Of a stretch of 64,000 nt of DNA, positions 11,636-63,678 are shown piece by piece. Below the pieces are notes generated by a model that was not told where the DNA came from, did no database searches, and saw only the letters and a program-made list of their open reading frames with translations. Source of the stretch: Jutongia hominis (GTDB lineage: Bacteria; Bacillota; Clostridia; Lachnospirales; Lachnospiraceae); assembly GCF_014384965.1 (NCBI RefSeq), contig NZ_JACRSW010000030.1:1-64000 (forward strand), read 5' to 3'. A program made the translations under genes and the position numbers. Numbering within the stretch: the first letter of the stretch is position 1; each line of letters begins with the position of its first letter.

Positions 11636-12159
11636 GCCATTTACCAAACAACATCCAAATCTTATACCCGATCTCACAACACAATGTATGTCTTATGTAA
11701 TGTCTGTGTCTGGCAGTTTTATTTTGTTTTTGTCTTTTCAGGCACTGTTTCGTCTGTCAAGAATATCTAAGATTTTTTGCTTTTTTGCTCTTATTATGGG
11801 CGCTCTCATCTGATATAGGGGCAAGGCCGGTCTGATGTACATTGCTGTTTGGGAATCTCAAAGACCGTCGCCACTTGCACTGCAAAAAAGTATTTGCTTT
11901 TTGCAGTGCTACGTGTGCGCTACGTGGCTTTGCGAAGCGGAAGCGTGTCCCAAACAACAATGCTACTCAGACTGAGTCGCCCCTATAGTTATGACCCGCG
12001 CCCAATAAGCAAAAAAGCTTAAAAATCAGATATTCTAAACAGCCGTCGTGTCTCTGAAAAGACAAAACTCAAAATAAAACTGCAACACTTAGATATCATA
12101 TGGGACATACATTGTGTTGTGAGAATTTGCCGTTCTTGTGATGTTGTTTCGTAAATGGC
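11636..12159 (+). repeat. Long palindromic element, copy 1 (core 11798-12003)
   Basis: A 524-bp quasi-palindrome fills the divergent region between the ABC exporter and the AraC regulator. The core starts GGGCGCTCTC and ends GCGCCC. Inside it TATAGGGGC (11814-11822) pairs with GCCCCTATA (11979-11987), and CTGCAAAAA (from 11880) pairs with TTTTTGCAG (11898-11906). Outside it AGAATATCT pairs with AGATATTCT, and the arms continue to match out to GCCATTTAC (11636) against GTAAATGGC (12151-12159), including a 20-bp block CTCACAACACAATGTATGTC and its complement. Arms are 162 and 156 nt. Open frames inside it are by-products of the repeat. Three other copies are in this window. Confidence 0.9.
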
Positions 12160-13468: not shown

Positions 13469-13636
13469 AGATCAGTGGAGCAAAATCCTATTAAGGAAAT
13501 AGTCCTTCGGAAGCATTCGGAACTTTTGACACCATGATGTTATCATGCAATTTGCTAAAAACAACCGCTAGCTTTTCAGCAAAAATGTCAATATTTTTTT
13601 CTAATGAAACTGTGTATATTAAAAGAACAACTTGCA

Positions 13637-14189
13637 AAGAAACTATGTGATCTTTATCTGTAATTACGATCCGTTTGGAAAAGGAAGATGTTTTTACCGT
13701 TTTGAAAATGTCTGCGTTGACGATCCATCCCTGAAACTGAAGGACGATTCCGTTAAGATCATGATCAATCCTTACGGAAATGACACGAAGCAATTCGGAA
13801 AAGGATTTGCCGCATTGATGGATTTTCTAAAAAACGGTCAGATATCCGATACCTATACAGAATCGCTGAAGGATGAGATCACAGAGGTCAAAGTGAGTGA
13901 AGAGTGGAGGCGAAGATATATGAAACTACTGATAAGAGATCAGGAAAACATTGAACTTGGCAAAGAAGTTGGAAAAGAACTGGGTGAATTATCAACCTGC
14001 GTCCGACAGGTAAAAACTAATATGGAACAATTTTCTGCCAGCCAACTGGCTTCCCTGCTCGGATTTGACCAATTGACCATTGAAGAAATATCAGAAAGCA
14101 TAAAGGCTCATCCTGACTGGAGCAATGAAAAGATTGCAACAGAACTGTTGGAAGAACGTAATAAACATAATAATACGGATGAATCGTGA
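13637..14189 (+). pseudogene. Truncated duplicate of the Rpn-family gene (3' part only)
   Basis: About 550 bp that is nearly identical to 15060-15628 of the intact gene downstream. Differences are a handful of substitutions, a 24-bp deletion in the repetitive GKEIGEKLGKEVGKELG coding stretch, and one extra codon near the end. Sequence corresponding to roughly the first 115 residues is missing, including the D-x(n)-E-x-Q nuclease residues. The frame is still open but starts only at a TTG without a clear ribosome site. The low divergence points to a recent duplication. Confidence 0.8.
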
Positions 14190-14301
14190 ATGTTGCTCCC
14201 ATACATCGATCCGCTCTTTTATATTATGCTTGCTGCTTCAAGCACATAAATCCGCTCTTTTATATCATAAACGTTGCTTCAGGCACATAAACCCGCTCTT
14301 T
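14190..14301 (+). repeat. 41-bp tandem repeats after the truncated Rpn copy
   Basis: CCGCTCTTTT occurs at 14211, 14252 and 14293, a 41-bp period, with units of the form GCTTC(A/C)AGCACATAAATCCGC. The same repeat family follows the intact gene at 15629-15781, so the repeats were part of the duplicated block. The rest of the stretch up to 14527 shows nothing recognisable. Confidence 0.75.
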
Positions 14302-14527
14302 TGAAATTTTCGTTTTCCTAAAGCGTATTATTCTATGAAATATTCTTTGGAAGTGTAAGAAATATACCTTACACTAAAAAGCAACTCCTTCTATATTTTT
14401 ATCTAATTTTTCAAAATCAATACACTTCAAAACACAGTTATTACTTTTTAAATCCAACAAAATAACCTCAGGAAGAATCTTAATTTTATACTAAAATCCG
14501 GTTGAAACGCAGCTGCTTGCTGTATAT

Positions 14528-14580
14528 AATAAAAGCAGAAACACACCATTTTTTGTGTAAAAATCTGTTTTGCTTTTATT
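14528..14580. other. Strong hairpin upstream of the Rpn gene
   Basis: AATAAAAGCA (14528-14537) pairs with TGCTTTTATT (14571-14580). The stem continues with AAACA against TGTTT across a bulged G. The A/T-rich flanks could act as a bidirectional terminator between the truncated and intact copies. Confidence 0.45.
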
Positions 14581-14713
14581 TATTGGAGCGGTATTCCTTT
14601 CGTTTGATTGAAAAGAGCAATCGATTATCGCTGACAGAGCATCACGCCTAAATCATGTTTCTCGAATATATAAAAGTAAGATTTTTCTGCCAACACAAGA
14701 AATGGAGAAACAT

Positions 14714-15628
14714 ATGACAAGAAAGTACAAAAGACTCGAAGAACTGGAAATATGGGATGATTTTATGTTTGGAGCTGTGATGAGCAACAAAGAACTTTGC
14801 AAACATCTGCTTGAGATCATTCTCCAAAAGAAAATCAAGGACATCCGATATACAGAACTTCAAAAAACAATTGATCTGCAATACGATGCAAAAAGCATTC
14901 GGCTGGATGTATATGTAGAGGATGATCTGGACTCTGTCTATAATATCGAGATCCAGACAACCGATGAAAAAAATCTTCCTAAAAGATCGCGGTTTTATCA
15001 GGGAATGATCGATCTGAACATTCTAAACAAAGGGGAATCCTATAACAAGCTAAAGAAAAGCTATGTGATCTTTATCTGTAATTACGATCCGTTTAGAAAA
15101 GGAAGATGTTTTTACCGTTTTGAAAATGTCTGCGTTGACGATCCATCCCTGAAACTGAAGGACGATTCCGTTAAGATCATGATCAATCCTTACGGAAATG
15201 ACACAAAGCAATTCGGAAAAGGATTTGCCGCATTGATGGATTTTCTAAAAAACGGTCAGATATCCGATACCTATACAGAATCGCTGAAGGACGAGATCAC
15301 AGAGGTCAAAGTGAGTGAAGAGTGGAGGCGAAGATATATGAAACTACTGATAAGAGATCAAGAAAACATTGAACTTGGCAAGGAGATTGGTGAAAAACTT
15401 GGCAAAGAAGTTGGAAAAGAACTGGGTGAATTATCAACCTGCGTCCGACAGGTAAGAACTAATATGGAACAATTTTCTGCCAGCCAACTGGCTTCCCTGC
15501 TCGGATTTGACCAATTGACCATTGAAGAAATATTAGAAAGCATAAAGGCTCATCCTGACTGGAGCAATGAAAAGATTGCAACAGAACTGTTGGAAGAACG
15601 TAATAAGCATAATACGGATGAATCGTGA
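14714..15628 (+). CDS. Rpn-family PD-(D/E)XK nuclease / putative transposase
   Basis: The start is set at 14714, where GGAG lies 6 bases upstream; a slightly longer frame starts at 14702. The 304-aa protein opens LEIWDDFMFGAVMSN, typical of the family. It carries the nuclease residues Asp65 (IRLDVYVED) and Glu79-x-Gln81 (YNIEIQ), then YVIFICNYDPF and a long hydrophilic tail with the Gly-Lys-rich repeat GKEIGEKLGKEVGKELG. Rpn proteins are RecA-independent recombination-promoting nucleases, common in many copies in gut Firmicutes. The C-terminal repeat length differs by 8 residues from the truncated copy, a hint of length variation. Confidence 0.82.
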   Translation: MTRKYKRLEELEIWDDFMFGAVMSNKELCKHLLEIILQKKIKDIRYTELQKTIDLQYDAKSIRLDVYVEDDLDSVYNIEIQTTDEKNLPKRSRFYQGMIDLNILNKGESYNKLKKSYVIFICNYDPFRKGRCFYRFENVCVDDPSLKLKDDSVKIMINPYGNDTKQFGKGFAALMDFLKNGQISDTYTESLKDEITEVKVSEEWRRRYMKLLIRDQENIELGKEIGEKLGKEVGKELGELSTCVRQVRTNMEQFSASQLASLLGFDQLTIEEILESIKAHPDWSNEKIATELLEERNKHNTDES

Positions 15629-15781
15629 ATGCTGTTTCAAACATATAAATCTACTCTTTGATATTATGAATGCTGCTTCGAGCACATAAATCTACTCTTT
15701 TATATCGTGAATGCTGTTTCAAATATATAAATCTGCTCTTTGATATCATACATGCTGCTTCAAACACATAATTTGCTCTTA
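15629..15781 (+). repeat. 41-bp tandem repeats after the intact Rpn gene
   Basis: CT(A/G)CTCTTT recurs at 15651, 15692 and 15733, and a variant at 15773, giving periods of 41, 41 and 40 bp. Units contain GCTTC(A/G)A(A/G)CACATAAAT. Four degenerate units are seen against three after the truncated copy. Confidence 0.75.
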
Positions 15782-16116
15782 CAATTTTCTCTTTTTATTT
15801 CATAGAACTATTTATCCGTTCATTCGCTAAAGAAAAGCAAATCCCTATGAACTTTATTTTGAATTCATTTCATAAACAAATCTTAAAGTCACACAGTAAG
15901 TCTATGATTTTAGGACAAGATGTGGTATATTTACTTTTATGTGTATGAATAAATCATACCTTGATTTTACAGTTGAAAACGCTATCATGGTATTCATTGA
16001 AGTAAAATGTCATTGTATATCAAAAATCCTTCTCGAAATTTTTCATTCAAAAGATTCCGAGAGTACACCACTATACGAGCAGTTTTCTATTCCACAAAAA
16101 GAAAGGTGGCTTTTTG
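15782..16116. other. Intergenic leader of the DUF5662 gene
   Basis: No convincing gene. A short open frame (15939-16133) overlaps the next gene's start and has no ribosome site. The segment 16063-16101 (…TACGAGCAG…CTATTCCA…) closely resembles the last 40 bp of the 93-bp tandem units at 16731-17102, so the downstream array shares sequence with this leader. Confidence 0.6.
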
Positions 16117-16677
16117 ATGAGTCTTTGGTATAACTTTTGGGGACATTTACGAACGATCCTGCATCATAAGAATCTGGTTCGTCATTATTGTTTTCGTGCC
16201 GGACTTTATAAGCAGGGAATCATGCATGACTGGTCAAAATATTCTCCGGTCGAATTTATCAATAGTGTCCGCAATTTCCAAGGCGGCAAAAAAAGCCCAA
16301 ACTTTGGTGAAAAAGCAACGAAGGGATATTCTTCTTCCTGGCTTCATCACAAAGGACGTAATCGTCACCATTTTGAATACTGGATCGACTTCACTTTAAA
16401 TCCCGATGAGGGCTTGCAAGGAATGCCAATGCCGACCAGATATGTGTTGGAAATGTTTTGCGACCGCATCGCAGCAAGCAAAAACTACAATCGTAAGAAT
16501 TATGACGATTCTTTTCCTCTTGCTTATTATGAAAAGAACAAATCCCATTATATCCTGCACAAGGATACAAAAGAACTTTTGGAACGTCTTTTGCATATGC
16601 TTGCCGATGAAGGCGAAGACAAGACATTTGCTTATATCCGCAAAAATATAGATTGGAAACATTCTCCAAAATGGTAA
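16117..16677 (+). CDS. DUF5662 family protein
   Basis: The ATG at 16117 follows AAAGGTGG by 7 bases; a TTG one codon earlier is less likely. The 186-aa protein matches the DUF5662 pattern: an N-terminal helix NFWGHLRTILHHKNLV, GIMHDWSKYSPVEF, WLHHKGRNRHHFEYW, then MPTRYVLEMFCDRIAASKNY. The spaced His/Asp residues (HD, HH, HH) resemble a small HD-type metal-binding helical fold, so hydrolase activity is possible, but the function is unknown. It is cytoplasmic by composition. Confidence 0.8.
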   Translation: MSLWYNFWGHLRTILHHKNLVRHYCFRAGLYKQGIMHDWSKYSPVEFINSVRNFQGGKKSPNFGEKATKGYSSSWLHHKGRNRHHFEYWIDFTLNPDEGLQGMPMPTRYVLEMFCDRIAASKNYNRKNYDDSFPLAYYEKNKSHYILHKDTKELLERLLHMLADEGEDKTFAYIRKNIDWKHSPKW

Positions 16678-16730
16678 TCGTGCAATCACCTTAGATAAAA
16701 TATTTTAAATTATCAACAGACCAGAAAATA

Positions 16731-17102
16731 AAAAAGTGCAAAGCCAGCGCTTTGCACTCCAAGAATTGCTAAAGCAATTCTTGTTGGTGTACCACCACTG
16801 TACGAGCAGTTTCCTATTCCATAAAAAAGTGCAAAGCCAGCGCTTTGCACTCCAAGAATTGCTAAAGCAATTCTTGTTGGTGTACCACCACTGTACGAGC
16901 AGTTTCCTATTCCATAAAAAAGTGCAAAGCCAGCGCTTTGCACTCCAAGAATTGCTAAAGCAATTCTTGTTGGTGTACCACCACTGTACGAGCAGTTTCC
17001 TATTCCATAAAAAAGTGCAAAGCCGGCGCTTTGCACTCCAAGAATTGCTAAAGCAATTCTTGCTGGTGTACCGCTACCATACGAGCAGTTTCCTATTCCA
17101 TG
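16731..17102 (+). repeat. Four tandem 93-bp units, each with two hairpins
   Basis: Units start at 16731, 16824, 16917 and 17010, exactly 93 bp apart, and are nearly identical (the last has several changes). Each contains AGTGCAAAGC-CAGC-GCTTTGCACT (10-bp perfect stem) and AAGAATTGC-TAAA-GCAATTCTT (9-bp perfect stem), followed by TACGAGCAGTTTCCTATTCC. Because 93 is a multiple of 3, long frames stay open on both strands, but neither has a ribosome site, so they are not called as genes. It lies between the DUF5662 and PAP2-like genes. Confidence 0.9.
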
Positions 17103-17177
17103 AAGCAGATGTATCAGAAAAGCCGGTACATCCATTTTTGAAGCTTTAATAAAACAGATACAGAGAGGATACATTTT

Positions 17178-17819
17178 ATGTTATTGAATTTTTTAAAAAA
17201 GAACAAACATGCTCTTTTTGCATTATATATCCCGGTTTACATGCATTTTTTTACATGGCTGGAAGCAAGAAATGATGTATCTTTTCAACCGATCCATTGT
17301 TTTATTGATGATATCATTCCCTTTAATGAACTTTTTGTAATTCCGTATGTTTTGTGGTTCTTATATGTGTTAGTTGTCATTGTATATCTTTATTTTCAAA
17401 AAGATCACTTAGAAGACTATTATCATTGTGTGATCACTTTGATCACAGGAATGACAACCTGCCTGTTGATCTATTACTTTTTTCCAAATGAACAAAATCT
17501 TCGCCCGGAAGCTTTTGCACATCCAAATATCCTGACAGATATTGTACAATTTATTTATGATAGTGATACGCATACAAATGTCTTTCCAAGCATTCATGTC
17601 TTTAACGCTGTAGCGATCCATGTAGCCTTGGTCACAAGTCCACGGATTAAAAAGATCAAATGGCTGCGACCGGCTTCATTGCTGCTTTGCTCTTTGATCT
17701 GTCTGTCTACAATGTTCTTAAAGCAACATTCTTTCTTAGACGTGATCGCAGCTTTGCTTTTGTATCTGCTGTATGCAACCTTGATCTATAAAGTAATCCC
17801 GCAGTGGAAAAAGGAATGA
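17178..17819 (+). CDS. PAP2-superfamily membrane protein
   Basis: The 213-aa integral membrane protein has about six membrane segments. PAP2-like motifs are N-L-R-P near residue 111, FPSIHVFNAVAIHVAL (near 136-151) with the motif-2 PSIH, and KQHSFLDVIAALLLY near 184-198 with the motif-3 His and Asp. Such enzymes remove phosphate from lipid phosphates or transfer phospho-head groups at the outer membrane face, e.g. undecaprenyl or phosphatidate substrates. GAGAGGATACATTTT precedes ATG 17178. The first motif Lys is not obvious, so activity is likely but not certain. Confidence 0.75.
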   Translation: MLLNFLKKNKHALFALYIPVYMHFFTWLEARNDVSFQPIHCFIDDIIPFNELFVIPYVLWFLYVLVVIVYLYFQKDHLEDYYHCVITLITGMTTCLLIYYFFPNEQNLRPEAFAHPNILTDIVQFIYDSDTHTNVFPSIHVFNAVAIHVALVTSPRIKKIKWLRPASLLLCSLICLSTMFLKQHSFLDVIAALLLYLLYATLIYKVIPQWKKE

Positions 17820-20956: not shown

Positions 20957-21721
20957 CTAAATGCGATACATCTCTTTTGCATTTTTCGTTGTCACGTCAA
21001 TAACTTCTTTAGCCGTCATTCCTTTTAACTGCGCAATCTCCTGTGCGACATACTTTAAATAATGGGAAGCATTTCTCTTTCCCCTGTTTGGCTCCGGTGT
21101 CAGATACGGTGCATCCGTTTCAAGAACAATACGCTCGATCGGGGTACATTTTACGACCTCTTTTAATTTCTTACCGTTCTTAAAAGTAACGACACCGCCA
21201 ATTCCAAGATAAAATCCCATATCCAGATAAACCTGTGCCATTTCTTTTCCATAAGAAAAACAATGGATCACACCGCCTATCTGCTCGCCATGCTCTTCCT
21301 TTATGATATCTAGCGTATCCTGTGCTGCATCCCTGCTGTGGATCACAACCGGAAGTCCTGTCTTTCTGGCAACCTCAAGCTGCTTACGAAACCATATCTT
21401 TTGTATATCACGCTTCGGATCTTCATAGTAATAATCTAACCCAATCTCTCCGATTGCTACAACTTTCTCTCTTTTTGCAAGTTCGCAAAGCCAGTCCATA
21501 TCCTGATTGGTCAGTTCTTCCACCCCTTCGGGATGCACACCGACAGCCGCATAAATAAAGTCATATTGTTCACTCAAAGCAACTGCTTTTTTGGTAGATG
21601 CGATCGTTGCACCAACATCTGTAACCAGACCGACACCATCCTGCCGTATCAACTTCAATATATCCTCTCTATCTTCCTCATAAGCCTCATCATCATAATG
21701 TGCATGCGTATCAAAAATCAC
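20957..21721 (-). CDS. tatD: TatD family metal-dependent DNase / deoxyribonuclease
   Basis: A GTG at 21721 preceded by GGAGG (21734-21730) with 8-base spacing gives a product starting (M)IFDTHAHYDD, the usual TatD start; the longer frame from 21748 adds nine residues and lacks such a site. The 255-aa TIM-barrel enzyme shows the metal ligands DTHAHYDD, GEIGLDYYYE (Glu), VVIHSRDA (His), IHCFSY (His) and ETDAPYLTPEP (Asp). TatD proteins are 3'-5' exonucleases linked to DNA repair and quality control. A palindromic element abuts its ribosome-binding site. Confidence 0.93.
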   Translation of the reverse strand: MIFDTHAHYDDEAYEEDREDILKLIRQDGVGLVTDVGATIASTKKAVALSEQYDFIYAAVGVHPEGVEELTNQDMDWLCELAKREKVVAIGEIGLDYYYEDPKRDIQKIWFRKQLEVARKTGLPVVIHSRDAAQDTLDIIKEEHGEQIGGVIHCFSYGKEMAQVYLDMGFYLGIGGVVTFKNGKKLKEVVKCTPIERIVLETDAPYLTPEPNRGKRNASHYLKYVAQEIAQLKGMTAKEVIDVTTKNAKEMYRI

Positions 21722-21740
21722 GTCTTCTTCCTCCATTTCT

Positions 21741-22450
21741 TTTTGCATCTTCCAACAAACACAGCTTTTTCCTTCTGCATGGCACTATGCTCACAAGGCC
21801 TCATACCGTGCCAGCCTGCTATCCTTTATGCCATATTTTGATAACTTTCTGCTTTTTATATGTCAGCCTGTTATCTCTATGCCATATTTTGATAAGATCT
21901 GTTTTTTATTGTGTCAGCCTATGATCTCCATGTCATATTTTGATAGAGTTCTGTTTTTTATTGTGTCAGCTAGTAAGACATCAAGCTATATTTTGATATT
22001 TTTCTAATTTTCAGGTACTGTATCACCCTGTAAGGATATCTATGAATTTTTGCTTTTTTGCCCTATTGTGGGGCGCTCTCATCTGATATAGGGGCAAGGC
22101 CAGTCCTGATGTACATTGCTGTTAGGGCTCTCTAAGCCCGTCGCCACTTGCGCTTCAAAAAATGATCTGCTTTTTTGAAGTGCTATGTGTGCGCTACGTG
22201 GCTTTGCGAAGCGAAAGCGTGCCCTGCACAGCAATGCTACTCAGGCTGAGTCGCCCCTATAGTTATGAACCGCGCCCACATGCAAAAAAGCATAAAAATT
22301 CTGATATCCTAACAGGCTGGCGTATCTCTAAAAATTAGAAAAATATCAAAACACAGCAGTCATGCTTATGCGGCTGACACATCCCATACATTATCAGGCA
22401 TAGTGCCGTGCAGAAGGACAGAATGCTGTATAGGTTGGAAGATGCAAAAA
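21741..22450 (+). repeat. Long palindromic element, copy 2 (core 22071-22277)
   Basis: A 710-bp quasi-palindrome between the permease and tatD. The core is homologous to copy 1, but the inner stem reads CTTCAAAAAA (22153) against TTTTTTGAAG (22171-22180), a compensatory change relative to CTGC/GCAG in copies 1 and 4. Flanking AGGATATCT pairs with GATATCCT. Further out TTTTGATATTTTTC is matched on the other side, then CCTTCTGCA(T/C)GGCACTATGC, and finally TTTTGCATCTTCCAAC (21741) against its complement ending at 22450. The left arm is longer (330 against 173 nt) because of a tandem array inside it. Confidence 0.88.
21809..22015 (+). repeat. 52-bp tandem repeats inside the left arm of palindrome copy 2
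   Basis: Four units start at 21809, 21861, 21912 and 21964. Each begins TG(C/T)CAGC and contains ATATTTTGATA and CTGTTTTTTAT-like stretches. The last unit runs into the arm that pairs with the right side of the palindrome, so the extra units appear to be later expansion of an arm segment. Confidence 0.8.
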
Positions 22451-22507
22451 ATTCAGGAGACACCCGTGATTTTTGATACTAAAATCGTATGGGGTATCCC
22501 CTGAATT
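22450..22507 (-). terminator. Intrinsic terminator of the NhaD-like permease gene
   Basis: AATTCAGGAGACACCC pairs with GGGGTATCCCCTGAATT, with a second stem GATTTT/AAAATC in the loop. Read leftward, downstream of the permease stop, it is followed directly by a run of six T. It adjoins the right end of palindrome copy 2. Confidence 0.7.
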
Positions 22508-38925: not shown

Positions 38926-39702
38926 TCTTCTGTACTCGGTCGGTGTCATTTGCAAATGTTTCTTAAATTGTTTCATAAAATAGTACGCATTACGATAACC
39001 GCATTTGATGGCAATATCATGTACCGACAATGTGGTTGTCGATAATAGTCTCTTTGCACAGTCCATACGGCTTTGTACCATGTCCTGTGTAATACTGACA
39101 CCAAAAAGTTTCTTATAAAGATGTTGCAGTCCGGAGCGGCTGAAACCGGCACGCTGTGCTAATTCATCCACCGTACATATCTGCTCCGGCTGTGCATATA
39201 TTTCCATTCGGATCCGTGTTAATTTATGATTTTTCTTTAAAAAAGACTGTGGCATTACATATACTTTTGTCTGGATCGACCTGCTGATCGTATCAAAAAG
39301 GATCTCAAGATAATTTTTTTCAATTTCTTCCCGGTAAATTCCAACCGAATAATGTTCTAAGCTCATGCGATGCATCAAAGAAGAAAGTTCTGCTGTCTGT
39401 CCGAGATGTAACAACGTATTGGTTGGGATCTTTCTTTCCAGCAGATATGCTTTGTCTGTCTCTTCCGTCTCGGCAAAGAACCAGTCATCTGTATACACTT
39501 TGTCTTTTGCACAGTATTTGCAAGGTGTTCCCGGTTCTAAAAGCAGGATCGTTCCCGGCTCAGCCTGCATCTTTTCCTTGCCGATCACAAACTTTGCTGT
39601 CGTCTTAATGATCAAAAAAAGCCAGCATTCCAAGCCATCTTCAAAGTCCATCACAAAACGCTCATCATGTGAATGATCATAACCAATCGAACCTATTTTC
39701 AT
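38908..39702 (-). CDS. AraC-family transcriptional regulator
   Basis: The start is placed at the ATG at 39702, with GGAG 7 bases upstream; a Met two codons earlier is too close. The 264-aa product has an N-terminal cupin-like sensing half ([20 protein letters not shown]) and two C-terminal helix-turn-helices ([20 protein letters not shown] and [19 protein letters not shown], ending MTPTEYRR). It lies upstream of palindrome copy 3 and the GH43 gene, but all are leftward, so it may regulate glycosidase genes locally. This is inference. Confidence 0.9.
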
Positions 39703-39732
39703 AACCATTCTCCTTTCTCTTTCTTCAAATAC

Positions 39733-40321
39733 GCCACCCATATTCCATCCCTTGGGATCACCTGTGCTGTTAGAACCTTTTTTCTGAATTTTCCCGGCTT
39801 AAGGAGAAACGCTTGCGTCATCTTCTTAGTCTGCGTATCGTATTTCCGGTTTGTTATTGTCTTTTGGGGAGACACGACGGTCGGTTAGGATATCTGATTT
39901 TTTAAGCTTTTTTTGCAGGTGGGCGCGGGTCATAACTATAGGGGCGACTCAGCCTGAGTAGCATTGCTGTGTAGGGCACGCTTCCGCTTCGCAAAGCCAC
40001 GTAGCGCACACATAGCGTTGCAAAAAGCGTAACACTCTTTTTGCAGCGCAAGTGGCGACGGGCTTAGAGAGCCCAAACAGCAATGTACATCAGGACTGGC
40101 CTTGCCCCTATATCAGATGAGAGCGCCCACGATCAGAGCAAAAAAAGCAAAAAAATCCTAGATATCCTTACCGGGCGATACAGTGCCCCCAAAAGCCAAA
40201 ACAACCGGAAATACGAATGCAATACCCCAAAAAAGAGGACGCAATCAATTTTCTTATATCAAAAAATTCAGAAAAAAGTTCTAAGAAGACAGGTATTGTG
40301 TGGATGCTATGTATGGGTGGC
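39733..40321 (-). repeat. Long palindromic element, copy 3 (core 39921-40138, reversed)
   Basis: A 589-bp quasi-palindrome that fills the gap between the GH43 and AraC genes. Its core is homologous to the others on the opposite strand. Flanks pair as AGGATATCT with its complement, like copy 2. The copy-specific arms match as CGTATTTCCGGTT, then TTGCGTC, TTAGAAC…TTTTTTCTGAATTTT and finally GCCACCCATA at 39733 against TATGGGTGGC ending at 40321. Arms are 188 and 183 nt. Confidence 0.88.
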
Positions 40322-40353
40322 AGAGTTGACAGGGCAGATGGGAGAATGGTTCT

Positions 40354-41709
40354 TTAGAGCATGAATGTGAATGAGTGCATTGCAAAGAGTTCACGTCCTG
40401 CAAAAAAGGTTGCCTCCCAGCCATCTTTTGGATAGGATGTCTGAACCGTAAAGTAAATCGCATGTCTTCCGGTTGGTCTTTCGACAACTGTAGTATACAC
40501 ACCATCTTCTTTGCCGATCAAACAGGTTCCGATTTCTTTTCCATCTTCGCTGTCAAGATGAATATGAATTTCGCTGTCACATCCTCTTCCGTCTGTTTTA
40601 ATTGCAAATTCCATTGTTTTGCTTGCAAGATCTTCTCCAAAGTCAAAGTATTTATATCCGATCACGCTGCCGTCTAAGATGTGTGTCACAACACGTTCCA
40701 ATACATTTTTTTCTGTAATAAACGGTCCGTTTTTCAAGACACAGGCATATTCTGCCTGCGTGATCTCAAAAGGATATAACGCTTTTGAAAATCCCAAAGA
40801 AGTCATTTCCACAGTGGAAAAGTTTCCTTCATCATCTATGGTGATCGGTTCTACACATCCTCTTCTTGAAAAGATCGTACCGTTTGTCATCTTATGATAG
40901 AAGATATACCACTGGTCATGGATCTGTACGACAGAACCATGGTCATTGCCACCCGGATAATCTATTTCATTGTCAATGATGTATCCCTTATAGCAGAAAG
41001 GTCCAAGCGGTTTATCTGAAACGGCATAAGCAAGTCTGCTGCCCTGCTTTGGTGAATAGATCAGATAATATTTCCCATTGATCTTTCGTGGGGAACACGC
41101 TTCAAAAAAGAGAGACTTCTCATCCGCAAAGCCATGCTCTGCATCCGGTTCAATCGGAATAACATCCTGCACATAGGTGTCCGGTAAGATCTCATACATA
41201 TTCTGCGGATTGACTTCTGCTGCAAAAGAACGTTGAAAGCCGCAATAAATGTACACTCTTCCATCATCATCCACTAACACACCCGGATCGATAAACTGTC
41301 CGTCTACACAGACTTCTTCCGGCATATCATATCGGTATTGCGATACCAGATGAAACGGTCCTTCCGGCTTCTCACTGACTGCTACACAGCCTTTTGCTCC
41401 GGCAATATATGCATACAGATAATATTTTCCATCCTTTTCTACAACATCCGGTGCATACAATTCATTTTCTTCGCCTGCCCAGTCTGCATCTGCCAAATGA
41501 TCCCGGTCATCCTTTGTATGAAAGATGTCTCCGTGACAGGTCCAATGCTCCAGATCATCAGTTGATGCGCTCCAGCATTTTAAAACATGATCACAAAATC
41601 TGGTAGAACCGGCTTTATCATGTGAACCATACACATAGATCCGGTCTCCAAATACTCTTGGTTCTCCGTCCGGGATATATTCCCAGACCGGTAAATATGG
41701 GTTTGCCAT
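40354..41709 (-). CDS. GH43 family glycosidase, cytoplasmic
   Basis: The 451-aa protein has no signal peptide. The five-bladed propeller landmarks are visible: VFGDRIYVYGSHD, ELYAPDVVEKDGKYYLYAY, FIDPGVLVDDDGRVYIYCGF (Asp), FFEACSPRKINGKYYLIYSP (general-acid Glu) and NDHGSVVQIHDQWYIFYHK. A C-terminal CBM6-like beta domain follows (about 330-451). Likely an arabinofuranosidase or beta-xylosidase acting on imported oligosaccharides. AAAGGAGGACAAAA precedes the start. Divergent from a secreted GH43 enzyme, so the pair may act in sequence. Confidence 0.88.
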   Translation of the reverse strand: MANPYLPVWEYIPDGEPRVFGDRIYVYGSHDKAGSTRFCDHVLKCWSASTDDLEHWTCHGDIFHTKDDRDHLADADWAGEENELYAPDVVEKDGKYYLYAYIAGAKGCVAVSEKPEGPFHLVSQYRYDMPEEVCVDGQFIDPGVLVDDDGRVYIYCGFQRSFAAEVNPQNMYEILPDTYVQDVIPIEPDAEHGFADEKSLFFEACSPRKINGKYYLIYSPKQGSRLAYAVSDKPLGPFCYKGYIIDNEIDYPGGNDHGSVVQIHDQWYIFYHKMTNGTIFSRRGCVEPITIDDEGNFSTVEMTSLGFSKALYPFEITQAEYACVLKNGPFITEKNVLERVVTHILDGSVIGYKYFDFGEDLASKTMEFAIKTDGRGCDSEIHIHLDSEDGKEIGTCLIGKEDGVYTTVVERPTGRHAIYFTVQTSYPKDGWEATFFAGRELFAMHSFTFML

Positions 41710-49115: not shown

Positions 49116-49147
49116 CTCCTAATCTCCTCCTTTTCATCATCCCTAAA

Positions 49148-49674
49148 CCATTTGCAACCCACACCCTCTCACCCTTCTTTGATGCATTCCCTGCAAAATA
49201 CATGTCATGTTAAAGTAATATGCTTTCGTAATTCTATTTCTTTTGACTTTTGGAGCACTGTTTTGCCCGGTAAGAATATCTAAGATTTTTGACTTTTTTG
49301 CCATGATTATGGGCGCTCTCATCTGATATAGGGGCAGGGCCAGTCCTGATGTACATTGCTGTTTGGGAATCTCAAAGGCCGTCGCCACTTGCGCTGCAAA
49401 AATGTTTGCTTTTTTGCAGTGCTATGTGTGCGCTACGTGGCTTTGCGAAGCGGGAGCGTGTCCCAAACAACAATGCTACTCAGGCTGAGTCGCCCCTATA
49501 GTTATGACCCGCGCCCAATCAGCAAAAAAGTCTTAAAAATCAGATATTCTAACCGGTCAGCGTGTCTTACCAAAAGGCAAAAAGAAATAGCATTTACGAA
49601 AAGAAAGCTTTTGTACATGACATGTGCTTTGCAGGGAATGCATGACACAACGTAAAATGTTGGGTTGTAAATGG
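49148..49674 (+). repeat. Long palindromic element, copy 4 (core 49311-49516)
   Basis: A 527-bp quasi-palindrome between the lipoprotein gene and the 981-aa protein gene. The core is nearly identical to copy 1. Outside, AGAATATCT pairs with AGATATTCT. TTGACTTTTTTG pairs with CAAAAAAGTC, where copy 1 has GC-type pairs at the same place. The arms continue through TATTTCTTTT(T)G and ATGCATTCCCTGCAAA to CCATTTGCAACCCA (49148) against TGGGTTGTAAATGG (49661-49674). Arms are 163 and 158 nt. Confidence 0.9.
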
Positions 49675-49682
49675 CTTATTTA

Positions 49683-50720
49683 TTACGATTTTTTATTATA
49701 GCGAAATCCTATGTATAGTTGGATCTGGTTTGTTGTGTTGTAGATCAGCCCCTTTCCATGTTCAAAGGTATAGGAATCTCCTACTGCACTTCCGGTTGTT
49801 AAGGTGATTTTATCATCTGCTGTTACACCATTTCCGAAAAGGCTTGCAATCTGCTGTTTTGTCAAAGTAAAACCGCTGATCTCATGCCATACCGCGTCGT
49901 CAGTATCTTCATCCGAGACCACATACGTTGCCACCATATATTGGTAGACACGATAGTTCAGTTCTTTGCTTTTTCCCTGATAAGTAATCGTGCAGGTATG
50001 CTTCCCAAGGGAGGCTGTGCTTAGCCCATCCATCTCATATTCATCTCGGGAAAGCGTTTTAGTGCTGCCATCTTCGTAAACGGCTTTTACAGTAAGAACT
50101 GATAAGTCTACGGTTTCGCCTTTGTTATAGTCATTTCGCAATTCGCCATCCACCTGTATTTCTGCTAATTTTTTTGGTTTTGGTGTCGCTGTTGGCTTTG
50201 GCGTGGAAGTCTGCGTTGGCTTCGGTTCTTCTGTCGGCGTCTGCGTCGCAGTCGATGGCTGCGCAGTCTGATCAGCTGTACGGTTTGTCTCTGGCTTTTT
50301 CTCCGTAGCAGCTTTCTTTGTCTTTGTGTCAGCAGAATCTTTTTTACTGGAAGTGCTGCTGTTCCTTTTCGACTTTTGCTCTTTCTGTGAGACTCTCTTT
50401 TCGTCAGAAGTCTGATTGTTAATTCGATCCGCCATATCAGTCTCCTGTACCGCAGGAGCATTTTCTTCTTTCAGCGTCTCATCGCTTTTGCGATCTGTCT
50501 TTTCCTGCGTTGTATCTTTTTTAGCAGATAATTTTGTCATTGCAAAGGCATCTTCAAACTTTTTTTGTGTTTTTAATGCCGGATAGTTCTTCCCTGACTC
50601 TTTAGTCATTAAATAGGAGGTCGGGTGATATGTAATCTTCTTTTTCTGACAACCGCTGAGCATAATTGCTATCGATCCGATCATAAAAAAATATAATATA
50701 CTTTTTCGTTTCTTTCTCAA
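49683..50720 (-). CDS. Lipoprotein with Ser/Thr/Lys-rich linker and Ig-like (Big_3) domain
   Basis: The 345-aa product begins MRKKRKSILYFFMIGSIAIM and has the lipobox MLSGC (lipidated Cys24). Residues about 60-190 are low-complexity Lys/Thr/Ser/Pro (including TPTEEPKPTQTSTPKPTATP). Residues about 193-265 form a Big_3-type Ig domain (GETVDLSVLTVKAVYEDGS, LGKHTCTITYQG). A short C-terminal domain follows. Last gene of the MoxR-DUF58-transglutaminase operon, 18 bp downstream of its neighbour. Confidence 0.8.
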   Translation of the reverse strand: MRKKRKSILYFFMIGSIAIMLSGCQKKKITYHPTSYLMTKESGKNYPALKTQKKFEDAFAMTKLSAKKDTTQEKTDRKSDETLKEENAPAVQETDMADRINNQTSDEKRVSQKEQKSKRNSSTSSKKDSADTKTKKAATEKKPETNRTADQTAQPSTATQTPTEEPKPTQTSTPKPTATPKPKKLAEIQVDGELRNDYNKGETVDLSVLTVKAVYEDGSTKTLSRDEYEMDGLSTASLGKHTCTITYQGKSKELNYRVYQYMVATYVVSDEDTDDAVWHEISGFTLTKQQIASLFGNGVTADDKITLTTGSAVGDSYTFEHGKGLIYNTTNQIQLYIGFRYNKKS

Positions 50721-63365: not shown

Positions 63366-63506
63366 GAAATGCCTCCTGCCCTGACCGGTCACACCCGCTC
63401 TTTTATACCCTTCTATATGTATATGCACAAGCATTTCGTTTCATTCCTGATTCTATCATCAAGAAAGTTTCTTTTCATGCCCTGCTTCATCTGCAAGACA
63501 ATTTTA

Positions 63507-63660
63507 CTTCATTCCCGGTTACATCTTCAAGATAGTTTTACTTCATTCCCGGTTACATCTTCAAGTCAATTTTGCTTCATTCCCGATTACATCTTCAAGA
63601 TAGTTTTGCTTCATTCCCGGTTACATCTTCAAGATAATTCCGTTTCATTCCTGATTTATT
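63507..63660. repeat. 34-bp tandem repeats between the BMP-protein gene and the DUF885 gene
   Basis: (C/T)TTCATTCCCGGTTACATCTT-type units begin at 63507, 63541, 63575, 63609 and 63643, exactly 34 bp apart, with AAGATAGTTTT-like spacers that are also conserved. A diverged unit precedes them at about 63465-63500. There are no unique spacers, so this is not a CRISPR array. Confidence 0.85.
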
Positions 63661-63678
63661 CGTCATGAGAATTTCATT

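What the first reader, a model, noticed from the sequence alone, without database searches (positions are those of the whole stretch)
11636..12159. Four-copy family of long intergenic palindromes with a conserved 206-218 bp core
Copies at 11636-12159, 21741-22450, 39733-40321 and 49148-49674 share a core running from GGGCGCTCTC to GCGCCC, containing TATAGGGGC/GCCCCTATA and GCCAC/GTGGC stems. They occupy nearly the whole of four unrelated intergenic regions, in both orientations relative to flanking genes. Orientation is independent of gene direction, so simple terminators or leaders are unlikely. Possible identities: a structured non-coding RNA family, a hairpin-type non-autonomous mobile element, or a chromosome-structure element. 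I cannot match it to a named RNA or repeat family.
Basis: seen in the sequence. Interest (0 to 1): 0.85.

Follow-up and report, generated by a model that had tools for sequence, protein, structure and literature searches.

The report
Repeat hairpins with locus-specific arms
This bacterial DNA carries several copies of a long hairpin whose centre is nearly the same each time but whose outer arms differ from site to site and still match each other, as if the hairpin had turned the DNA beside it into mirror copies.

Summary
Four palindromes (c1 11636-12159, c2 21708-22479, c3 39704-40350, c4 49144-49678) share a 206-208 bp core plus about 70 nt each side and cover 63-99% of their gaps. Folding z-scores are -17 to -23. 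Rfam has no match. Copies exist outside the window: spurious ORFs through the core match 32 and 18 protein clusters.

Beyond about 80 nt from the core, arms are unrelated between copies yet complementary within a copy (c1, c3, c4; c2). In c2 the far side holds an inverted copy of the start of the neighbouring tatD gene; c3 shows a weaker case. G-U and A-C mismatches are balanced, so RNA-level selection is not supported.

Best reading: a transposon-like DNA foldback repeat whose flanks became inverted copies by foldback copying (template switching), up to gene borders. Dispersal and mechanism are inferred; no target duplication, empty site or mobilising enzyme was shown. It resembles MITE, RPE and REP-type repeats but has copy-specific arms: a new variant of a known kind.

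The parts
11636..12159 (+). copy c1, palindrome; core 11798-12003; alignable part about 11728-12073
21708..22479 (+). copy c2, palindrome including the start of tatD and its inverted copy; core 22071-22277; alignable part about 22001-22347
39704..40350 (-). copy c3, palindrome, core in the opposite orientation; core 39921-40128; alignable part about 39851-40198
49144..49678 (+). copy c4, palindrome; core 49311-49516; alignable part about 49241-49586
21708..21722 (-). start of tatD (C + GTG ATT TTT GAT AC), gene side, taken as the original
   Evidence: IFDTH at the start of 115 of the 120 listed tatD clusters (counted by hand)
22465..22479 (+). identical inverted copy of the tatD start on the far side of c2
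   Evidence: 1 of 2000 shuffles reaches the score
39703..39718 (-). ribosome-binding region next to the ATG (39700-39702) of the AraC-type gene
40336..40351 (+). weaker inverted match to 39703-39718 on the far side of c3
   Evidence: 38 of 2000 shuffles reach the score
21824..21976 (+). three 51-nt tandem units in the left arm of c2 (75% and 65% like the first), without counterpart in the right arm
   Evidence: D11

Best explanation
A multicopy DNA foldback element. A conserved, bulged hairpin of about 345 bp (206-208 bp core plus about 70 nt on each side) has been dispersed to intergenic sites, much like a non-autonomous transposon. At each site the unique DNA next to it has become part of the palindrome: when the hairpin folds in single-stranded DNA during replication, the growing strand can switch template, copy the opposite arm outward past its end, and return. 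That leaves an inverted copy of one flank on the other side and keeps the two arms alike. Repeated events lengthen the palindrome until coding sequence stops it. Shown: the conserved centre, arms that are complementary within but unrelated between copies, the inverted tatD start in c2, copies in other assemblies. Inferred: dispersal by transposition, template switching as the copying step, and the stop at genes.
For: Between-copy identity of the arms from 81 to 180 nt out equals shuffled controls (z -0.6 to 2.1 left, -0.4 to 0.8 right), while within-copy identity reaches z 6.5 and local arm-arm alignments z 16.8, 14.3 and 17.8 for c1, c3, c4; c2 pairs along its length in the fold. Cores are 90-96% identical, the next 70 nt 64-80%. 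The far side of c2 carries the start of tatD inverted (1 of 2000 shuffles), and the gene side is the conserved coding start. c3 shows a weaker inverted match over its gene's ribosome-binding region (38 of 2000). c3 and c4 stop 2-4 nt short of the neighbouring stop codons. Paired positions change together: 19 of 126 pairs changed on both sides, shuffle mean 7.1, 0 of 500. In the 70-nt arms clean double changes (48 pairwise comparisons) exceed one-sided changes to G-U (9), with 31 one-sided changes that break the pair. G-U and A-C are balanced (22:17 outside the core; 14:12 in the core). Peptides P0016 and P0040, from opposite sides of the core, share a 28-residue outer tail with one difference. 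P0047 runs into a SEC-C motif and a SecA-like end. Template switching that makes and mends hairpins is described in PMC8794818 (abstract and passages).
Against: No empty site, no target duplication and no mobilising enzyme was shown, so mobility rests on dispersal alone. c1 and c4 share an outer stretch at the same distance from the core (c1L-c4R z 6.5; c1R-c4R z 3.8), and c1, c3 and c4 arms have similar lengths, as a fixed element end would give. The same covariation could come from selection for pairing. The P0016/P0040 pair could also reflect an inverted core at one locus, and P0040 comes from a 535-nt contig that may be misassembled. Four copies are few.
Confidence: 0.5

Rival explanations
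1. An ordinary non-autonomous transposon (MITE-like). The whole palindrome, ends included, is the element and moves in trans; the arms were once shared, have diverged, and stay complementary through conversion between the arms.
For: c1 and c4 share ATGTTG..GTAAATGGC at the same distance from the core. From the core-side TIR to the outer end the arms of c1, c3 and c4 measure roughly 108-135 nt (my reading). The family is multicopy at unrelated sites.
Against: The outer arms of the other pairs are at the shuffle level while the cores are 90-96% identical, which asks for very uneven change along one element. No target duplication at either set of ends. It does not explain a gene start inside the c2 palindrome.
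Confidence: 0.2
2. A structured RNA family: the core is transcribed and works as an RNA, with a long stem held by compensatory change.
For: Strong folding, covariation in the alignable part, bulges of the core alike in all four copies, and at the c4 locus 0 of 49 core residues against 6 of 45 arm residues changed in P0004 (hand count, variable loop left out; Fisher p 0.010).
Against: G-U and A-C mismatches are balanced; the core bias (13:1) appears on the reverse strand too (12:2). No Rfam match (only weak ones for c4, E 0.2 to 8). Promoter-like sites are at chance level and terminator-like sites absent in the two copies scanned, c1 and c4. RNA function does not explain arms made of gene starts.
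Confidence: 0.15
3. A protein-binding or chromosome-structure site: the core is kept because a DNA-binding protein recognises it, folded or not.
For: The core is far more conserved than its surroundings, and GTGTGCGCTACGTGGCTTTGCGAAGCG is invariant in the four copies. Pairing is equally good on both strands.
Against: Does not explain arms that are complementary within but unrelated between copies. Four copies are too few to test placement relative to genes or replication.
Confidence: 0.1

Closest known systems
REP elements and BIMEs (PMC3733652, abstract and outline seen)
   Same: multicopy, intergenic, palindromic, species-restricted in many families
   Different: REPs are 20-40 bp with GTAG or CGTC tags by that abstract; here 524-772 bp with locus-specific arms
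MITEs and other non-autonomous foldback transposons (recalled)
   Same: non-coding, imperfect terminal inverted repeats, dispersed at unrelated sites
   Different: no target duplication found; outer arms differ between copies
Rickettsia palindromic elements (recalled; PMC3767692 seen in a search listing only)
   Same: dispersed palindromic repeats without a known enzyme
   Different: recalled as about 100-150 bp and often inside genes; the copies here are longer and intergenic in the window
Palindromic repeats of Volvox organelles (PMC2670323, abstract and section 6) and hairpin elements of sponge mitochondria (PMC2800124, abstract and section 23)
   Same: hairpin repeats thought to be selfish that fill intergenic DNA
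   Different: organelles; the Volvox units average 50 nt and their sequence is shared between copies
Template-switch mutations at hairpins (PMC8794818, abstract and passages)
   Same: the copying step proposed here for arm identity and extension
   Different: described there for stems of RNA genes, not for hundreds of bases around a dispersed repeat

Membership tests
REP/BIME | unit of 20-40 bp with a GTAG or CGTC tag | tested here: not met
   length 524-772 bp; tags were not examined separately
REP/BIME | RAYT transposase in the genome | not testable with these tools
   no genome held; no Y1 transposase family among Pfam matches of 43 of the 87 listed ORFs of the window
MITE / non-autonomous DNA transposon | terminal inverted repeats shared between copies | tested here: inconclusive
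   imperfect inverted ends of the alignable part are shared; outermost ends are shared by c1 and c4 only
MITE / non-autonomous DNA transposon | target-site duplication | tested here: not met
   longest direct word at the ends 5 nt or less; 12% of random spacings give 6 or more; exact ends are uncertain
MITE / non-autonomous DNA transposon | empty sites in related strains | not testable with these tools
   no DNA of relatives could be reached
structured non-coding RNA | match to a curated RNA family | tested here: not met
   no match at gathering score for the whole window; below it only E 0.2 to 8 for c4, the one copy so searched
structured non-coding RNA | compensatory changes in the stem | tested here: met
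   19 of 126 pairs, 0 of 500 shuffles reach it; template switching would give the same
structured non-coding RNA | excess of G-U over A-C on the transcribed strand | tested here: not met
   22:17 outside the core, 14:12 in the core on a strand-neutral pair list
small protein gene | reading frame kept between copies | tested here: not met
   frames shift in the loop between the four window copies
intrinsic terminator | GC-rich stem followed by a T run | tested here: not met
   0 terminator-like sites in the c1 and c4 regions; c2 and c3 not scanned

The most novel reading that the evidence does not exclude
A self-extending palindrome: a conserved DNA hairpin that, once in place, drives foldback copying which turns the unique DNA around it into an inverted repeat, locus by locus, until coding sequence stops it. 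It would impose a shape rather than a sequence on its surroundings, and would set copies of promoters and gene starts on the far side of the gap.
Probability: 0.38. Interest if true: 0.82.

Novelty: new variant of a known kind. Interest (0 to 1): 0.62.

Why it matters
Palindromes of this size are expected to be cut or deleted in bacteria (recalled), yet four lie in 64 kb and the core recurs in other public assemblies. If the arms are built by copying the flanks, the family is a natural series of template-switch events in one lineage, and could be used to measure how palindromes form, spread and stop. It would also be a route by which gene starts and regulatory sequence are duplicated in inverse orientation between genes.

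Tried and rejected
Coding reading: ORFs through the core recur in the protein collection, but the frame shifts in the loop between the window copies, so I treat these peptides as spurious gene calls and use them only as tracers of the DNA.

RNA reading from a wobble bias: one search gave 13 G-U to 1 A-C in the core. The same count on the reverse strand gave 12 to 2, and a strand-neutral pair list 14 to 12: the bias came from the folding program, and I dropped it.

Spread in genomes: one IUPAC pattern over genome contigs gave 2 stretches, in an Acidobacteriota and a Gemmatimonadetes contig; by eye neither resembles the element, and I count them as chance. Relatives with a changed motif would be missed. 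Viral contigs: 0 for two exact patterns, 17 stretches for peptide patterns of which none was confirmed. Plasmids and phages: no match, tried with the c4 core region only.

Organism: tatD gave 16 clusters at 97-99% identity, then mostly 74-89%, then about 70% and below (120 of 7594 listed). Of the 82-89% clusters I read three in full (P0067, P0068, P0073); by eye they look like chimeras of this protein with another. No species name came out; one element peptide is named as from a Clostridiaceae bacterium MAG (P0037).

Target-site duplications: none at palindrome ends or at the ends of the alignable part.

Literature: ten searches (one search failed) listed no title that I recognised as this family. 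Read: PMC8794818 (abstract and passages), PMC2670323 (abstract, section 6), PMC2800124 (abstract, section 23), PMC3733652 (abstract and outline). Others were seen only in listings. The library lacks most subscription papers and all preprints.

Full report
What is there. Folded whole, they lie 17 to 23 standard deviations below shuffles. A core 20-mer occurs four times in the window, three on + and one on -. The cores are 206-208 bp and 90-96% identical in pairs (184 of 205 to 195 of 204 ungapped positions); the next 70 nt on each side are 64-80% identical. A scan of the window shows no other foldback as strong; the best outside is a 93-bp tandem array at 16.6-17.2 kb.

Place. The palindromes cover 63% (c1), 91% (c2), 99% (c3) and 94% (c4) of the gap between neighbouring ORFs. 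The c3 alignment runs from next to the start codon of an AraC-type gene to 2-3 nt before the stop codon of a GH43 gene, and c4 ends 4 nt before the stop codon of a gene with a Big_3 domain. All four lie at the 5' end of the gene on their left; with four copies this proves nothing.

Arms. With the inner 80 nt kept and the rest shuffled as control, between-copy identity in the bins from 81 to 180 nt is at the shuffle level (z -0.6 to 2.1 left, -0.4 to 0.8 right), while within-copy identity rises above it (z up to 6.5, and -0.2 in the last of these bins). Local alignments of the outer arms reach z 16.8, 14.3 and 17.8 for c1, c3 and c4. c2 is not in that list: its left arm holds three 51-nt tandem units that the right arm lacks. 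It pairs when aligned near the core (120 of 139 ungapped positions outside the core) and along its length in the fold. Against the reading: c1 and c4 share an outer stretch, ATGTTG..GTAAATGGC, at the same distance from the core (z 6.5 for c1L-c4R, 3.8 for c1R-c4R), as a fixed element end would. A third cross-copy match, c2R-c3L, is a 12-nt A-rich word (z 2.7).

An inverted gene start. On the left it is the start of tatD, GTG ATT TTT GAT AC. The residues IFDTH stand near the start of 115 of the 120 listed tatD clusters (counted by hand), so the gene side is taken as the original and the far side as the copy. The match is reached by 1 of 2000 shuffles. c3 has a weaker one over the ribosome-binding region of its gene (38 of 2000); c1 and c4 have none (926 and 113 of 2000). 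Mismatched flanks of different copies score at most 9, against 15 for c2 and 12 for c3.

DNA or RNA. In the alignable part 19 of 126 pairs changed on both sides, against a shuffle mean of 7.1 (0 of 500) and at most 3 in slid controls. Eighteen of these 19 pairs lie outside the core by my count of the helices. With four sequences this shows that the arms change together, not why. Selection on RNA should leave G-U more often than A-C. Outside the core the counts, added by hand in core orientation, are 22 and 17 (p 0.52). In the core a first count of 13 to 1 proved to come from the folding program: the reverse strand gives 12 to 2, and the neutral list 14 to 12. In the 70-nt arms there are 48 clean double changes, 9 one-sided changes to G-U and 31 one-sided changes that break the pair. 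This fits copying of one DNA arm from the other better than slow compensation through G-U. The bulges of the core look alike in all four copies, so something keeps its asymmetry.

Outside the window. No genome is held. With ORFs that happen to cross the core as tracers, 32 of 85 candidate clusters (right side) and 18 of 19 (left side) carry element sequence; source tags are ena for 38, jgi for 11 and ncbi for 1. Of 30 right-hand tails 23 were long enough to compare and form 9 groups; of 18 left-hand tails 15 form 8 groups (a loose threshold, which lumps the alignable part). By eye P0004 and P0010 match the c4 arm and P0033, P0042 and P0008 the c3 arms, so these loci exist in other assemblies. 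P0016 and P0040, from opposite sides of the core, share a 28-residue tail with one difference; P0012 and P0036 may be another such pair (score 65). P0040 comes from a 535-nt contig and may be misassembled, and an inverted core at one locus would look the same. P0047 runs into a SEC-C motif and aligns with the end of SecA; P0050 runs into gene-like sequence with no family above its cut-off. So gene sequence can lie close to the alignable part.

Conservation in place. Between window c4 and P0004 the core differs in 0 of 49 residues, with the variable loop left out, and the arm in 6 of 45 (hand count; Fisher p 0.010). Between window c3 and P0033 it is 0 of 15 and 3 of 78 (hand count), which tells nothing. 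The core may be kept in place, or the arms may change faster.

How it most likely works. The conserved hairpin is dispersed like a non-autonomous foldback element; how is not known, since no target duplication, empty site or enzyme is in evidence. A gene of the PDDEXK_2 nuclease/transposase family lies at 14702-15628, with nothing to connect it. Pfam was run on 43 of the 87 listed ORFs. Once in place, the hairpin offers a foldback template during replication. Copying past the end of an arm would place an inverted copy of one flank on the other side. This accounts for locus-specific arms, the inverted tatD start, double changes without wobble, and palindromes that end at genes. The copying step is described for hairpins of RNA genes (PMC8794818); arms of more than 100 nt at each of four sites would be new to my knowledge.

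Standing. The copies are not REP elements by size. MITE membership is not shown: no target duplication, and outer ends shared by two copies only. No Rfam family matches. That it behaves like a foldback repeat is better supported than any family name. Ten literature searches (listed in Tried and rejected) showed no description of it in the held library.

Noticed in passing
16635-17192: Tandem array of 93-nt units (5 copies reported) in which each unit holds short inverted repeats such as GTGCAAAGC..GCTTTGCAC; the strongest foldback outside the four palindromes.
   Followed up: partly
13626-15782: Near-identical duplicated stretches (97% and 99%) around a PDDEXK_2-family gene (14702-15628), with 41-nt spaced repeats at 14209-14342 and 15608-15782.
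   Followed up: no
63406-63677: Tandem array of 34-nt units next to the start of a DUF885 gene.
   Followed up: no
20957-21721: tatD most likely starts at GTG 21719-21721 on the - strand; the listed ORF to 21748 is an over-extended call. Three relatives at 85-89% identity that I read look like chimeras by eye.
   Followed up: partly
49683-50720 and 40354-41709: The stop codons of these two genes lie 2-4 nt from the ends of c4 and c3, so any terminator of theirs would have to lie in the palindrome; none was recognised in c4, c3 was not scanned.
   Followed up: partly
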